A DNA stretch of 64,000 nt, taken from the IMG/VR virus record IMGVR_UViG_3300050015_000656, positions 1 through 64,000 of that record, one strand, 5' to 3'. Of this stretch, positions 1 to 28,685 are shown one piece after another. The notes under the pieces were generated by a model. It was not told the origin of the DNA. It did no database searches and saw only the letters and a program-made list of their open reading frames with translations. Both the position numbers and the translations under genes were made by a program. Positions within the stretch are counted from its first letter, which is position 1, and every line of letters starts with the position of its first letter. The stretch is from a virus.

Positions 1-2
1 GG

Positions 3-80
3 AAGCGTAGTGTAAAGCGTAAAAAAGAATTGAAAGAAGAAAAATTGAAGTTACAACAATTAAAAGACGAAATATTATGA
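3..80 (+). CDS. C-terminal end of a lysine/glutamate-rich protein (partial)
   Basis: An open frame enters from the left edge and stops at TGA 78-80, leaving 25 residues very rich in Lys, Glu and Leu, consistent with a charged helix. The stop overlaps the next start in an ATGA arrangement, which suggests translational coupling. Too little is visible to assign a function. Confidence 0.5.
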   Translation, partial: KRSVKRKKELKEEKLKLQQLKDEIL

Positions 81-259
81 CAAAAGAAATTAAAGTAAAC
101 GGGGGATATATTGTTAAATTTATTAAACCCAATAAAAAATATCCCGTATCATATACACTGGCTCAAGACGGGAGAAAGATAATGATGCCAACATGGGTTA
201 AAGGAGTTGATTTAACCGAACCTCAAATTTTTGAATTATTCGAAAAAGAATTATTATAA
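77..259 (+). CDS. Small hypothetical protein, 60 aa
   Basis: A 60-residue basic protein with no motif I recognise. Its ATG overlaps the stop of the preceding partial gene by 4 nt (ATGA), and the next gene follows after 11 nt, so it looks like one cistron in a tight + strand run of small accessory genes. Function unknown. Confidence 0.6.
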   Translation: MTKEIKVNGGYIVKFIKPNKKYPVSYTLAQDGRKIMMPTWVKGVDLTEPQIFELFEKELL

Positions 260-270
260 ATTAGTTAATT

Positions 271-633
271 ATGGAAAGACAAATTAAATTTAGAGCATGG
301 GACGAAGGTAATAAAATCATGCACAACAACTTTCAATTCATTCGTTCAGGAGAAGAAGGTAATGATTGGATAGTATTCACATCCGATAAACAAACTCTTA
401 AAGATAAACAGCATCCATTAGAAAATCCTTATTTTCAACAACAATTGAAAATAATGGAATGGTCTGGAATCGAAAACATCTTCGAAGGAGATATTGTCAC
501 ATTAGGCGAAATTGATGGAGAGGGTGTAGTTAAATACAATGAAGACAGATTTTATGTTGATTATGGAACTACGCATACAAGAGTGAGTAAAAATCATAAA
601 GTATTAGGAAATATTTACGAAAAAACTGAATAA
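271..633 (+). CDS. YopX-family protein
   Basis: 120 aa. The start (IKFRAWDEGNKIM) and the middle (GIENIFEGDIVTLGEIDGEG, then VVKY and LGNIYE) fit the YopX family: an N-terminal FRAWD strand, an (I/Y)EGDIV turn and a closing GNI(Y/H)E strand. YopX proteins are common in Bacteroides and Firmicutes phages and prophages; their molecular role is not established. The TAA is followed at once by the next ATG (635), so it is co-transcribed with the zinc-binding genes downstream. Confidence 0.8.
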   Translation: MERQIKFRAWDEGNKIMHNNFQFIRSGEEGNDWIVFTSDKQTLKDKQHPLENPYFQQQLKIMEWSGIENIFEGDIVTLGEIDGEGVVKYNEDRFYVDYGTTHTRVSKNHKVLGNIYEKTE

Positions 634-634
634 A

Positions 635-856
635 ATGAGTGGAGAAGTAGAATTCGGAAGATGTGATATTTGTAAAGAGGATAAACCTCTTGAAAGGACA
701 TACTATCATTATGACATTAAATGTGAATGTCATTCACCCCGTCATTTTGAATTGGTCAGGCATTGTAAAGATTGTGTTCCAGTAGAACCTCTTGAAACAA
801 CCTTAACTATTAAAATAGAGACATTAAGAATATTATTACACTTGCCGAAACATTAA
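635..856 (+). CDS. Small zinc-binding protein with CxxC pairs
   Basis: 73 aa with CDIC near the N-terminus, a CEC motif and a CKDC motif separated by about 15-25 residues, plus several His, consistent with a small treble-clef or rubredoxin-like zinc site. The central block (YYHYDIKCECHS..HFELVRHCKDC) looks like a phage-borne hypothetical family found in Bacteroidota phages. No enzymatic motif. It is sandwiched between two small genes with 1-4 nt gaps. Confidence 0.65.
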   Translation: MSGEVEFGRCDICKEDKPLERTYYHYDIKCECHSPRHFELVRHCKDCVPVEPLETTLTIKIETLRILLHLPKH

Positions 857-860
857 TAAT

Positions 861-1067
861 ATGAAATCACAATATAAAATAATTAAAAAATTTAAACCCA
901 CAAAAATAAACGGGATTGATTTTTATTCTGATGTACAGGTGTGGAAAATGATTGATATGGCATACGAACAAATTCGAAACAAAGAAGAAATATCAGAACC
1001 AATGGAATCAGGCGCAGAGTTTTATTGCCCTGATTGTGGTAAAAGTGTTTACAGTTGTGGATGTTAA
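861..1067 (+). CDS. Small zinc-ribbon protein
   Basis: 68 aa. The last 15 residues hold CPDCGKSVYSCGC, a compact four-cysteine zinc site; the N-terminal half is basic. No partner or function can be inferred beyond membership of the small-gene run. TnpB begins 9 nt after its stop. Confidence 0.6.
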   Translation: MKSQYKIIKKFKPTKINGIDFYSDVQVWKMIDMAYEQIRNKEEISEPMESGAEFYCPDCGKSVYSCGC

Positions 1068-1076
1068 TTTATAAAT

Positions 1077-2210
1077 ATGAAACTAATCCGTTCAACCAAA
1101 TGTAGTCTGAAATTCGCAACAGCGAAGAAGCAGAATGAACTATCGGTCATCTTGAGTGAATACTCGAAGGTTGTTAATATCTTCATTGACTATTTCTGGT
1201 TGAATGCTGATAAAGCAACTAAAGGTGAACTTCTTAAACCAGTTGTTGATATTCCCGAAACATGGTTATCAGCACGACTGAGAAAAGTAGCAGCCAGAGA
1301 AGCAATCGACATGATTAATGCCAGTAAGCAAAGGTGGAAAGAAAAAGCAGTGAAGCCAGTTCATAAAGGTAACAGAATGTATGTTAGTTGCACCATTGCT
1401 GATTTGGTATCCACAAAGAACAACGGATATAAAACCGAAGACAGTTTGAGGTTTGATGCTTGGTTACACATAGCAAGTGTTGGTAACAAAATGATAATGG
1501 ACTTACCGATTAAATATCACAAACATTTCAACAAATATAATAACATCGGTAAGAGATTGAATTCATATATCATCACCAAGAATTATGTCCAGTTCAGTTT
1601 TGAGATAATCACCGAGACAAAAAAGGAAGGTAAACATTGCATCGGTATCGACACTGGAATAAACGCACTGGCAAGTCTTAACAACGGCAATCAGTATGGT
1701 CTGGACATCAAAGGTTGTATCGAGAGAGTTAAAAGATGTAAGCAGAAGTCCAAAGGTTATTATGTTGCTAAAAGAGCGTTGAAACAAAGAATTGATGAAA
1801 CAGCGAAAGAGATATTAGTAAAAGAAAATCCAGATTTAATTGTTGTTGAACAACTAAAAAAGATGGGATATAAAAGTAAAGCCAAACGCTTGTTGGCTAA
1901 AAATATCAGGCGTTCTATCGGAACTTGGAATTGGAAGTATTGGCTCAAAAGGTTAGAAGCACAATGCGAGATTAACCGTGTTAGTTTTCGCAGTGTAGCA
2001 CCTTATTACACCAGTACAACCTGTCCAGTATGTGGTCATTCTGATAGGGGAAATCGACTCGGTGAAGTGTTCTTGTGTCTATCATGTGGTCACAAAGACA
2101 ATGCAGATATAAATGCGGGTAAGAACATTTTGAATCGGTTTCTCACGGGACAATACGGTGCTCGTTACAAGGAAATAAAGGATGTGCAAGTTTGTGCAGA
2201 TTTATTTTAA
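1077..2210 (+). CDS. tnpB: TnpB-like RNA-guided nuclease, IS200/IS605-type (copy 1)
   Basis: 377 aa. A RuvC-like catalytic triad is complete: D192 in IGIDTG, E258 in VVEQL and D344 in DNADINAG. Between the last two lies a four-cysteine zinc ribbon (CPVCGH then CLSCGH), the standard TnpB/OrfB layout. Characterised TnpB proteins are RNA-guided nucleases that use an omega RNA made from the element's right end. No tnpA transposase is adjacent. No flanking gene is visibly broken, and clear element ends are not seen, so it could be a domesticated or stand-alone tnpB. It differs strongly in sequence from the copy at 27.3 kb. All key residues are present, so activity is plausible. Confidence 0.9.
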   Translation: MKLIRSTKCSLKFATAKKQNELSVILSEYSKVVNIFIDYFWLNADKATKGELLKPVVDIPETWLSARLRKVAAREAIDMINASKQRWKEKAVKPVHKGNRMYVSCTIADLVSTKNNGYKTEDSLRFDAWLHIASVGNKMIMDLPIKYHKHFNKYNNIGKRLNSYIITKNYVQFSFEIITETKKEGKHCIGIDTGINALASLNNGNQYGLDIKGCIERVKRCKQKSKGYYVAKRALKQRIDETAKEILVKENPDLIVVEQLKKMGYKSKAKRLLAKNIRRSIGTWNWKYWLKRLEAQCEINRVSFRSVAPYYTSTTCPVCGHSDRGNRLGEVFLCLSCGHKDNADINAGKNILNRFLTGQYGARYKEIKDVQVCADLF

Positions 2211-2273
2211 CGGTAATGCAGAAGCATTGCTACAAATGCAGAAAATGGGATTAAAAATCGATTTTAATTAAAA

Positions 2274-25950: not shown

Positions 25951-26697
25951 TTATAAATTGTCAATAATCCACGAATTACTTGACTTATCTCTTTTAATAT
26001 GATATTTTTTTATCAGTCTATAAAATGTCCTTAAATTCATATTTATTTTTTTGGCTGCAATATTAATCGTACCGGATGAATTTAATGCCTTAAGCATCGA
26101 TGAAACCTTTTGAAATTCTAAATTTAATTCACCGTTATCTACCTTTCTCAAAATTGTGCTTCCACCATAATTTTTATTAAAAAGTATACCTGTTCCATTG
26201 TCTAATCTACCGAAATAATTAATAAACACTTGCTCAATATGATATGCATCAATTTCAGTAACATTTTCAATCAACTTTACGGCAGAAAAATCATTGGTTG
26301 ACTTTAATTCATTAATGCGCTCGATTAAATTAGTGTCCCTATTATTCATGTCTGAAATTCTACCGTTTTTACCCTTACCAAAATATATTGGTTCATAGTA
26401 TAAATAAAAATTACCAACTCTAATATCTACTTCTTTTCTCATATTATAATATACATAAACGTAATAATTATTGGTCGCACGATTGTTGTTGATTGTGTCG
26501 ATGATTGTAGCATCTTCGATTTTTATTTCATTAAAATAATTAATATCGGTGATTTTAATCTTATAATGTTCTAATATCGCTTCCTCAATCACATCATTTA
26601 CGCTAACGTCTTGATTTTCATCTTTAGATAATGTTATTCTAATTTCTTCAAGTTTATTAAATAAACCATCAGATAACTCATACACAATTTTTTTCAT
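25951..26697 (-). CDS. LEM3-type GIY-YIG endonuclease with C-terminal HTH
   Basis: 248 aa from ATG 26697, chosen over 26763 because a GTATTTATA box lies 13 nt upstream. The N-terminal part (KIVYELSDGLFNKLEEI ... VNDVIEEAILEHY) looks like a ribbon-helix-helix. The nuclease core has NYYVYVYYNMR then PIYFGKGKNGRISDM, matching the long-spaced LEM3/T4-like GIY-YIG class. A C-terminal INIAAKKINMNLRTFYRLIKKYHI is a helix-turn-helix for DNA recognition. It is a probable free-standing homing endonuclease. Confidence 0.75.
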   Translation of the reverse strand: MKKIVYELSDGLFNKLEEIRITLSKDENQDVSVNDVIEEAILEHYKIKITDINYFNEIKIEDATIIDTINNNRATNNYYVYVYYNMRKEVDIRVGNFYLYYEPIYFGKGKNGRISDMNNRDTNLIERINELKSTNDFSAVKLIENVTEIDAYHIEQVFINYFGRLDNGTGILFNKNYGGSTILRKVDNGELNLEFQKVSSMLKALNSSGTINIAAKKINMNLRTFYRLIKKYHIKRDKSSNSWIIDNL

Positions 26698-26710
26698 AAC
26701 TAAAATTTTA

Positions 26711-26719
26711 TATAAATAC
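26711..26719 (-). promoter_or_regulatory. Phage box GTATTTATA
   Basis: - strand CAGTATTTATATAAAA, 13 nt before ATG 26697. Confidence 0.55.
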
Positions 26720-26830
26720 TGACAATTTTGAAATTTGTCATGTTTTAATGTAAATTTTGACATTAAATACTCAATGGTATGATTTCTGATAAGTTATGTG
26801 AAAATAACTTTATTTAAAATTTTAAAAGCT

Positions 26831-27187
26831 ATGTTAGTAAGAAGAAGCACAACACCATCCATTTTGGATTTGATATTCGATGACGATTTATTTAATCCAT
26901 TCAAAGACACATCGATTCAATGCCCGATTCACGATGTTATCGAAAACGAAAAAGAATTTGTTGTTGAAGCAATGTTAGCCGGGGTTAAAAAGGAAGATGT
27001 TCTCGTTGATATCAACGCAAGGAGATTGTCAATTGAGGCAGTACGCAAGGAAGTTAAAGACCTGAAATACAACCGTAAAGAATCCTATACAGGCAAATAT
27101 AAAAGGTCTTTCATTTTACCGGATATTGCCGATGCAGAAAACATCACAGCCAACTTGGAAGACGGGGTACATGAACAGTTCGGTTAA
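26831..27187 (+). pseudogene. 5' fragment of hsp20 small heat-shock protein, interrupted by a TnpB element
   Basis: From ATG 26831 the frame gives an Hsp20/alpha-crystallin protein: a short N-terminal arm, then PIHDVIENEKEFVVEAMLAGVKKEDVLVDINARRLSIEA, YTGKYKRSFILPDIADAENITANLEDGV. The next strands, normally LTVTIPK, are replaced by HEQFG and a stop that comes from inserted DNA after 27169. The missing C-terminus is intact at 28620-28685. Small heat-shock proteins prevent aggregation; phages encode them to protect or fold virion proteins. The truncated product lacks the last beta-strands and the dimer/oligomer-forming tail, so it is likely non-functional. Confidence 0.88.
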
Positions 27188-27269
27188 ATCTACAAAAAAT
27201 TACAAGAACCTATGAAAATCTATGAAAAAAATAAATTTAAGAAAAACCGATATTTTTATTTAATATATA

Positions 27270-27278
27270 CTATTTATA
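27270..27278 (+). promoter_or_regulatory. Phage-box variant CTATTTATA before tnpB
   Basis: + strand, 32 nt before ATG 27311, inside the inserted element. The spacing is longer than at most other copies. Confidence 0.3.
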
Positions 27279-27310
27279 AAAGGGATTAAAAATTAACCCG
27301 TAAAACAAAA

Positions 27311-28603
27311 ATGATAAAAGCAGTTAAAATAAGACTTTATCCGAACAAAACTCAAAGTAGTTATATAAATCGTCTATGTGGTTCATATAGAAAGATTTAT
27401 AATATGTGTTTGGAGAAGAAAATAACCGCTTATACAACAGATAAAACAACAGTAACATTTGGTGATTTAGGTAAATATTTTCATCAAGACCTAACTAAAA
27501 ATGAAGAATTTAATTATCTTAATGAACACAATACTAAAGTATTAAAGCAAAGTATTATTGATTTAATGGATGCCTATAAACGATTCTTCATCAACAATAC
27601 TGGTTTTCCAAAATATAAATCAAAACATGACAGTAAACAATCGGCAAGGTTTCCTTTAGAAGCAATATCAAAACTAAATAGTTATTCAGATAATAAAATA
27701 ACTTTAGGTAAAAACTTACAAAAGATTGGCTTTGAATGCAGTGACAGAGATAAAAATTATTTAACTAATCATAAAGATAAAATTAAATCAGCAACTATAA
27801 GTAGAACCAAATCAGATAAATATTTTTTATCAATACTAATTGAAAATATAATTGAAAAACAAATACCAGAACCAACTAATGATATTTTAGGTATTGATAT
27901 TGGTATAAAAGATTTTATGGTTTGTTCTGATGGTCAGGTATTTGATAACTTAAAGTTAAAAAGAAATAATGAAAAGACTTTAACTAAATTACAAAGACAA
28001 TTAAGTAAAAAAGTTATTGGGAGTCATAACAGGTATAAAATCAAATTAAAATTAGCAAAGAAACACGAAAAATTAAATAATATAAAAATAAATTACATAC
28101 ATAACATTACAACTCAATTAGTTCGTGAGAACCAAACGATAGTTATTGAGAATTTAAATGTTAAAGGTATGTTAAAAAACCATTGTTTGGCAAAATCAAT
28201 TCAAGATTTAAGTATCAACGAGACATTCAGACAGTTAAAATATAAATCTGAATGGTATGGAAGAGATTTGATTATAATAGACAGATGGTTTCCTTCATCA
28301 AAATTATGTAATGTTTGCGGTTATAAGTATAAAGAATTATCATTAAAAGAAAGGTATTGGACTTGTCCAGACTGTGGAACACAACATAATAGAGATTATA
28401 ATGCCGCAACAAACATTAAAAATGAAGGTCAGAGAATTTTAAATAATAAAATAGGGACACGTTATCCCGAATTTACGCTTGAGGACAATCCAACTATGGA
28501 TGACAGACTTAGCAATAAGGTACTAAAAAGTAGTGATTGGTTGAGACAAGAAGAAAAAAGTACAAATAGTGAACGAAGTGAACTTCGTACTAATTTTTTG
28601 TAG
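27311..28603 (+). CDS. tnpB: TnpB-like RNA-guided nuclease (copy 2, inside hsp20)
   Basis: 430 aa. The RuvC triad is complete: D196 in LGIDIG, E280 in VIENL and D362 in HNRDYNAATNI. The zinc ribbon is CNVCGY ... CPDCGT. An N-terminal helix-turn-helix-like TnpB start (AVKIRLYPNKTQ) is typical. It ends in TAG. It is long for a TnpB, with a Ser/Glu/Arg-rich tail after the triad (SDWLRQEEKSTNSERSEL) that probably also encodes the start of the omega RNA. A + strand gene in an otherwise - strand region, it is carried by the element that splits hsp20. Confidence 0.93.
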   Translation: MIKAVKIRLYPNKTQSSYINRLCGSYRKIYNMCLEKKITAYTTDKTTVTFGDLGKYFHQDLTKNEEFNYLNEHNTKVLKQSIIDLMDAYKRFFINNTGFPKYKSKHDSKQSARFPLEAISKLNSYSDNKITLGKNLQKIGFECSDRDKNYLTNHKDKIKSATISRTKSDKYFLSILIENIIEKQIPEPTNDILGIDIGIKDFMVCSDGQVFDNLKLKRNNEKTLTKLQRQLSKKVIGSHNRYKIKLKLAKKHEKLNNIKINYIHNITTQLVRENQTIVIENLNVKGMLKNHCLAKSIQDLSINETFRQLKYKSEWYGRDLIIIDRWFPSSKLCNVCGYKYKELSLKERYWTCPDCGTQHNRDYNAATNIKNEGQRILNNKIGTRYPEFTLEDNPTMDDRLSNKVLKSSDWLRQEEKSTNSERSELRTNFL

Positions 28604-28640
28604 ATTTTTTTGAACGGTATTAACAGTTACAATTCCAAAA
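28500..28640 (+). ncRNA. Predicted omega RNA (reRNA) and guide
   Basis: TnpB systems make their guide RNA from the 3' end of tnpB and the right end, with the guide being the flanking DNA just outside. The palindrome at 28573-28588 is the expected scaffold stem. The guide would begin near 28620, in the hsp20 3' fragment. The boundaries are inferred, not seen. Confidence 0.4.
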
Positions 28641-28685
28641 CTTGACAAAGCCAAAGAACTAAAGACAAAAATTGAGATTAAATAA
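28620..28685 (+). pseudogene. 3' fragment of hsp20
   Basis: Encodes LTVTIPKLDKAKELKTKIEIK and a TAA stop, the last beta-strands and C-terminal I-x-I-type tail of an Hsp20 protein. It is in frame with the 5' fragment once 27170-28619 is removed. Confidence 0.88.

What the first reader, a model, noticed from the sequence alone, without database searches (positions are those of the whole stretch)
26831..28685. A TnpB-only element has split a phage hsp20 gene and both halves remain readable
Sequence: hsp20 stops making sense at 27169 (..LEDGV) and resumes at 28620 (LTVTIPKLDK..) in a frame that joins perfectly when 27170-28619 is removed. The insert carries a catalytically intact tnpB and no tnpA. 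No nonsense mutations are visible in either half, so the insertion looks recent. It is a clean natural case of an IS200/IS605-type element hitting a phage chaperone gene.
Basis: seen in the sequence. Interest (0 to 1): 0.85.

Follow-up and report, generated by a model that had tools for sequence, protein, structure and literature searches.

The report
TnpB-only IS607 element in phage hsp20
A small jumping element that carries an RNA-guided DNA-cutting gene but no transposase has landed inside a phage's heat-shock gene; it belongs to the IS607 type rather than the IS605 type, and was probably moved by a transposase supplied by related elements in the same phages.

Summary
Confirmed: this phage's hsp20 is split by a 1450-bp insert (27168-28617) carrying an intact tnpB and no tnpA. 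Three relatives hold an uninterrupted hsp20 at the same place.

The classification needs correcting. Ends, target and transposase-bearing kin are IS607 (serine recombinase), not IS200/IS605. Copies sit after GGG and end in ACGG, and the next host base is T in 21 of 21 right ends. No Y1 transposase was found in either record of this phage, while IS607 tnpA elements share the left end. The phage with the empty hsp20 (G002) carries a tnpA-bearing IS607 element whose ends match ours at 31/37 and 28/30 bases (random maximum 24 and 21).

A second copy (86% identical TnpB) splits mazG in the same phage; both belong to a TnpB-only clade found at several unrelated sites. The right end encodes a guide-RNA scaffold with strong covariation. 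Group I splicing was tested against a T4 control and not found. "Recent" cannot be shown.

More unusual is something beside the finding: the window's first 2.2 kb is the right part of an IS607 element with cargo genes between tnpA and a distant TnpB. Near-identical relatives carry different cargo.

The parts
26831..27167 (+). hsp20 5' part, up to the crossover GG; its reading frame runs on into the element and stops at 27187
   Evidence: Pfam HSP20 E 1.1e-15, profile positions 1-80 of 102; uninterrupted homologues L004-L006
27164..27168 (+). target/TAM-like GGGG|T; last GG (27166-27167) is the inferred IS607 crossover dinucleotide
   Evidence: GGG[T/C] precedes the left end in every copy where the end was located; IS607 GG exchange from PMC6188088 and PMC10711439
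27168..27202 (+). left end (LE): AACAGTT motif at 27174-27180 and AAATCTACAAAAAATTA, inverted relative to the right end; probable TnpA-binding repeats
   Evidence: 31/37 identity with the LE of the tnpA-bearing element L052 (random maximum 23); same motif 276-347 bp upstream of tnpA in 21 of 22 tnpA loci
27168..28617 (+). whole inserted element, 1450 bp
   Evidence: junction comparison with L004-L006
27311..28603 (+). tnpB, 430 aa, RuvC triad D196/E280/D362 and zinc ribbon intact
28450..28618 (+). inferred omegaRNA (reRNA) scaffold, overlapping the 3' end of tnpB; the flanking T at 28618 is inferred to be scaffold, as in ISXfa1
   Evidence: 19 homologues: 21 of 30 pairs with double changes, 94.8% of cells paired vs 74.5% in shuffles and at most 57% when slid
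28589..28617 (+). right end (RE), ..TTTTTTGTAGATTTTTTTGAACGG
   Evidence: 28/30 identity (with the flanking T) with the RE of L052 (random maximum 20)
28619..28640 (+). predicted guide, taken from the interrupted hsp20 (ATTAACAGTTACAATTCC..)
   Evidence: inference from the IS607 TnpB literature (PMC10711439) and the element boundary
28618..28685 (+). hsp20 3' part: last strand of the alpha-crystallin domain and IEI(K) tail
   Evidence: sequence and homologues
1..2213 (+). right part of a separate tnpA-bearing IS607 element (tnpA 3' end 1-80, YopX-like cargo 271-633, distant TnpB 1077-2210, right end with GG 2212-2213); the rest is G001:114593-119330

Best explanation
A non-autonomous IS607-family element, consisting of tnpB, its guide RNA and the two ends, inserted at GGG|T inside the hsp20 of a large myovirus-like phage. 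Inferred mechanism: a serine-recombinase TnpA made by a related IS607 element in the same phage population bound the repeats at both ends, excised the element as a circle joined at GG, and inserted it by exchange with the GG of GGGGT in hsp20. TnpB with its RNA then carries a guide copied from the hsp20 3' flank; it would cut a restored or incoming empty hsp20 allele that has the GGG(T) motif and so favour retention of the element. The junction at its own right end reads ACGGT, not GGGT, which would protect it. Shown: the split gene, the empty sites, the ends, the fixed T, the RNA fold, the intact nuclease residues, a second copy in mazG, and tnpA elements with matching ends. Inferred: movement in trans, TnpB activity, the TAM, loss of Hsp20 function.
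For: Empty hsp20 in L004-L006. Second copy, TnpB 86% identical, splits mazG in the same phage; the rejoined protein aligns over all 86 residues at 58% with Gordonia phage MazG. No Y1 transposase in 34 of 36 records carrying the element or hsp20 relatives, including both records of this phage; the two that have one carry it outside the element. Serine recombinases scoring as IS607 transposase above cut-off stand next to homologous tnpBs (L017/L102) and in G001. 21 of 22 tnpA loci carry the same LE motif. L052, in the phage with the empty hsp20, has LE 31/37 and RE 28/30 identical to ours. Base after CGG is T in 21/21 right ends and in the tnpA elements with the distant TnpB, the fixed right-flanking nucleotide reported for IS607 (PMC10711439). 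hsp20, mazG and three further TnpB-only copies plus one unresolved row form a fully supported clade at different sites. omegaRNA covariation.
Against: No tnpA is in the element, so the family call rests on the ends and on kin. By profile the TnpB resembles IS200/IS605 TnpB more than IS607 TnpB. The closest matching ends (L052) come from a related phage, not from this one; the tnpA of this phage (G001:114885-115487) has more diverged ends and in G001 its tail is interrupted by a second IS607 element. Movement and nuclease activity were not observed.
Confidence: 0.87

Rival explanations
1. IS200/IS605 TnpB-only (IS1341-type) element moved by a Y1 HUH transposase.
For: TnpB profile scores favour IS200/IS605 TnpB. 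Two of 36 records contain a Y1 transposase somewhere.
Against: No Y1 in either record of this phage or in 34 of 36 records. The target is GGG|T, not a T-rich tetra- or pentanucleotide. The base after the right end is fixed. tnpA-bearing kin encode IS607 serine recombinases.
Confidence: 0.05
2. An IStron: the insert is spliced out of the mRNA, so hsp20 stays functional and the two open halves are maintained by selection.
For: Both copies sit in conserved genes and both halves are open. IS607-type IStrons exist, also in phages (PMC4227781). The two ends are complementary.
Against: Rfam with permissive settings finds no group I intron at E<=1 in 2.1 kb around the element, while the T4 td intron, with its own ORF, is found by the same setting and length at E 2.6e-8. 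Only 143 nt lie between the left end and tnpB. Complementary AT-rich ends are normal for IS607 (PMC4227781, PMC6188088).
Confidence: 0.04
3. A domesticated TnpB acting as a fixed phage gene (for example a regulator), no longer mobile.
For: Phage TnpB-derived regulators (TldR) are known (abstract of PMC13418256). The hsp20 insertion is the same in two assemblies.
Against: The RuvC triad is intact and both ends are complete. Close copies occupy different sites in the same and other phages.
Confidence: 0.05
4. The element now spreads mainly by TnpB-driven homing, that is cleavage of empty hsp20 alleles and copying by recombination during mixed infection, rather than by transposition.
For: Intact TnpB and a guide taken from hsp20. 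A gene-drive role of TnpB in plasmids is stated in the title of PMC11870625.
Against: Homing cannot explain the mazG copy or the other sites. The known relatives' hsp20 alleles lack GGGT at the site (GGTGT, GGAGT) and mismatch the guide. Not exclusive with the best explanation.
Confidence: 0.1

Closest known systems
IS607 family (IS607, IS1535, ISXfa1)
   Same: GG at both ends and at the target with (G)GG preference; AT-rich inverted and repeated subterminal motifs; fixed base after the right end; reRNA at the right end; ISXfa1 TnpB depletes a GGG motif (PMC6188088, PMC10711439)
   Different: no tnpA inside this element; TnpB profile closer to IS200/IS605 TnpB
ISBth15 (Bacillus thuringiensis)
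   Same: TnpB-only element filed under IS200/IS605 from its ORF B but with IS607-like ends (PMC4227781)
   Different: bacterial host; ends match group B IStrons, not this family
IS607-type (group B) IStrons, including those in Clostridium phages
   Same: IS607 ends, ORF B with ORF A lost or degraded, some in phages (PMC4227781)
   Different: no group I intron found here
TnpB elements of Lak megaphages
   Same: homologous TnpBs at up to 48% identity, 2-5 places per phage
   Different: hosts and sites differ; ends not compared here

Membership tests
IS607 | serine-recombinase TnpA with N-terminal MerR-type HTH | tested here: not met
   absent from the element itself; present in homologous elements (L017/L102, L074, L081, L109, L140) and in L052 and G001, scoring as NF033518 where tested
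IS607 | GG at both termini and at the target, no longer target duplication | tested here: met
   GGGG|T on the left, ACGG|T on the right; the 4-bp GGTA identity is GG plus a fixed T plus a chance A, as the mazG copy shares only GGT
IS607 | imperfect AT-rich inverted/subterminal repeats | tested here: met
   AAATCTACAAAAAATTA at both ends in opposite orientation
IS607 | fixed right-flanking nucleotide | tested here: met
   T in 21 of 21 right ends
IS200/IS605 | Y1 HUH transposase in the element or its kin | tested here: not met
   0 of 10 and 2 of 30 records (4 records in both sets), neither inside the element
IS200/IS605 | insertion 3' of a T-rich tetra/pentanucleotide with a variable base after the right end | tested here: not met
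   GGG|T target, fixed T
IStron | group I intron core | tested here: not met
   none at E<=1; T4 td control found at 2.6e-8
TnpB RNA-guided nuclease | RuvC D-E-D triad and zinc ribbon | tested here: met
   D196, E280, D362; four cysteines
TnpB RNA-guided nuclease | structured right-end RNA | tested here: met
   covariation well above shuffles and slid controls
TnpB RNA-guided nuclease | guided DNA cleavage next to a TAM | not testable with these tools
   needs an assay; GGG(T) is predicted

The most novel reading that the evidence does not exclude
Large phages host a divided IS607 system: tnpA-bearing carriers with exchangeable cargo genes between tnpA and a distant TnpB, and TnpB-only satellites such as the hsp20 and mazG copies, all using one set of ends and the same GGG|T sites, so that one transposase moves both kinds and the two TnpB lineages compete or cooperate for retention.
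Probability: 0.5. Interest if true: 0.62.

Novelty: new member of a known kind. Interest (0 to 1): 0.45.

Why it matters
It gives a clean, natural, testable case of a transposase-less TnpB element persisting in phages: an empty-site allele, a second copy in the same genome, and a candidate helper transposase with nearly the same ends. It also shows that filing TnpB-only elements by TnpB similarity can give the wrong transposase family, and it points to IS607 elements as carriers of exchangeable genes among large phages.

Tried and rejected
Splicing: considered because the ends are complementary and both known copies sit in conserved genes. Rfam at gathering cut-offs found nothing, but the T4 td and nrdB introns were also missed at that setting, so that negative was worthless; the permissive search with the td control was used instead. 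Group I splice-site rules also do not fit, since an intron ending in G would not restore the frame (own reasoning).

Exact empty allele in IMG/VR by 20-mer: none. An empty mazG in the hsp20 relatives: none found, so reference phages were used. Weak Rfam hits RAGATH-30 and rliI lie far below their cut-offs and are taken as chance. A second hsp20 in this phage: none.

LE similarity of the more diverged tnpA elements (L038, L048, L102, L074) does not exceed the random maximum over 37 bases, so only the short motif, not the full end, links those to the hsp20 element.

Full report
What is there. The hsp20 gene starting at 26831 follows its homologues to ..LEDGV and then runs into five unrelated residues and a stop at 27187. 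The missing tail lies at 28620-28685. The 5' part covers Pfam HSP20 positions 1-80 of 102. Three relatives from IMG/VR (L004 77%, L005 62%, L006 56% identical) have a whole hsp20 and the same sigma-factor neighbour, and their DNA runs straight through the site. Neither record of this phage has another hsp20. What is lost is the last strand of the alpha-crystallin domain and the IEI tail; loss of function is inferred, not shown.

Exact boundaries. GGTA occurs at both junctions (27166-27169, 28616-28619). Comparison with other copies shows that only GG is the likely exchange point: every located left end follows GGG (T or C next), and every right end reads ACGG with T after it. The element is therefore 27168-28617, 1450 bp, not a multiple of three.

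The family. The element has no transposase, so family must be read from ends and kin. Y1 transposases (IS200/IS605) are absent from both records of this phage and from 34 of 36 records searched; the two found are not inside the element. Homologous tnpBs in L017/L102, L074, L081, L109, L140 and others are preceded by serine recombinases; those tested score as IS607 transposase above NCBI's cut-off, with a MerR-type HTH. A scan for relatives of the tnpA in G001 gave 24 loci; 21 of the 22 examined have the motif GGG[T/C]-N3-8-AACNG[T/C]T 276-347 bp upstream of tnpA, the same motif as the left end of the hsp20 element. L052 is the clearest: it lies in the phage whose hsp20 is empty (G002), and its LE matches ours at 31 of 37 bases and its RE at 28 of 30, against random maxima of 23-24 and 20-21. 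Published IS607 features fit: GG ends, (G)GG target, AT-rich inverted and repeated motifs (PMC6188088), a fixed base after the right end and a GGG motif for ISXfa1 TnpB (PMC10711439). The TnpB itself scores higher with the IS200/IS605 TnpB profile; ISBth15 shows the same conflict (PMC4227781).

More than one copy. G001, a 299-kb record identical to the window over 10,339 bp, has a second copy with a TnpB 86% identical. It splits mazG at AAGGGT: the rejoined protein aligns over all 86 residues at 58% with Gordonia phage MazG, and the 3' half matches Pfam MazG. In a maximum-likelihood tree hsp20, mazG, L094, L063 and L067 form a 100/100 clade with one row of unknown state; in all five the left end directly precedes tnpB. 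Since these close relatives occupy different sites without tnpA, help in trans is the simplest reading. That step is inferred.

TnpB and its RNA. D196, E280 and D362 align with D191, E278 and D361 of the ISDra2-type chain, and all four zinc-ribbon cysteines are present. The 3' end of the element folds alike in 19 homologues: 21 of 30 pairs show changes on both sides, 94.8% of cells are paired against 74.5% in shuffles and at most 57% when slid. Relatedness inflates the shuffle control, but the slid control keeps relatedness and also fails. The guide would be hsp20 sequence from 28619. The relatives' hsp20 alleles read GGTGT or GGAGT at the site instead of GGGGT, so they should be poor targets both for insertion and for the nuclease.

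Is it spliced? The permissive Rfam search finds no group I intron in the element, and the T4 td intron is found by the same setting at E 2.6e-8. At gathering cut-offs even the T4 introns are missed, so only the permissive result is used.

Age. 'Recent' is not established. Open halves are expected for long periods when one is 21 codons, and no empty allele of the same strain was found.

The neighbouring element. Window 1-2213 is the right part of another IS607 element, G001:114593-119330. Its order is left end, a ~70-aa ORF, tnpA (its 3' end is window 1-80), cargo including a YopX-like gene, a 377-aa distant TnpB and a right end of the same type. Its rejoined flanks give one ORF, and homologues in L244, L247 and L251 span the junction. 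Near-identical tnpA (95-98%) and TnpB (about 94-95%) occur in L039-L043 and L045 with different cargo and different flanks; L039 has an 878-aa helicase, L041 two short ORFs. In G001 a further IS607 element (115463-117314) has hit the tail of this tnpA and replaced about 195 bp; the window's record starts at that junction and has the uninterrupted sequence.

Verdict. The finding is real and correctly read as a TnpB-only insertion; its family is IS607. As an insertion it is an ordinary event of a known kind. The matched helper element, the TnpB-only clade and the cargo-bearing carriers raise it somewhat.

Noticed in passing
window 1-2213 (G001:114593-119330); L039-L053: IS607 elements in large-phage contigs with cargo genes between tnpA and a distant 377-aa TnpB (YopX-like, helicase, M24 peptidase, others); near-identical tnpA and TnpB flank different cargo at different sites.
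   Followed up: partly
L054-L056: tnpA loci with the same left-end motif but with a DNA methylase gene (L054) between tnpA and a different TnpB, about 41% identical to the TnpB of the second IS607 element in G001.
   Followed up: partly
L036:488-700, L035:2108-2362, L039:4805-5020 and others: A conserved ~70-aa ORF (VVRVxKxEFELDNGDxYP) between the left end and tnpA, overlapping tnpA; no Pfam match.
   Followed up: no
G001:115463-117314 (L036:1262-3113) versus window 1-200: A second IS607 element inserted into the tail of tnpA with about 195 bp replaced; the window's record starts at that junction and lacks the insert, suggesting both forms exist.
   Followed up: partly
L086, L092, L095, L098 (3300031993_000026): At least four TnpB copies of this family in one 128-kb phage contig.
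   Followed up: no
L012 and L013: Same element with identical left flank but different right flanks; L013 ends a few bases on, so it may be an assembly error or an adjacent rearrangement.
   Followed up: no
window 25951-26763 (-): ORF next to hsp20 that looks GIY-YIG-like by eye (YVYVYYN...PIYFGKGKNGR) but has no Pfam match at 0.001.
   Followed up: no
L140, L141: Closest cellular relatives found are tnpA+tnpB elements in Bacteroidota MAGs, hinting at a Bacteroidota host.
   Followed up: no
L233 (T4 td and nrdB): Rfam gathering cut-offs miss both T4 group I introns with ORFs; a caution for intron negatives at that setting.
   Followed up: yes
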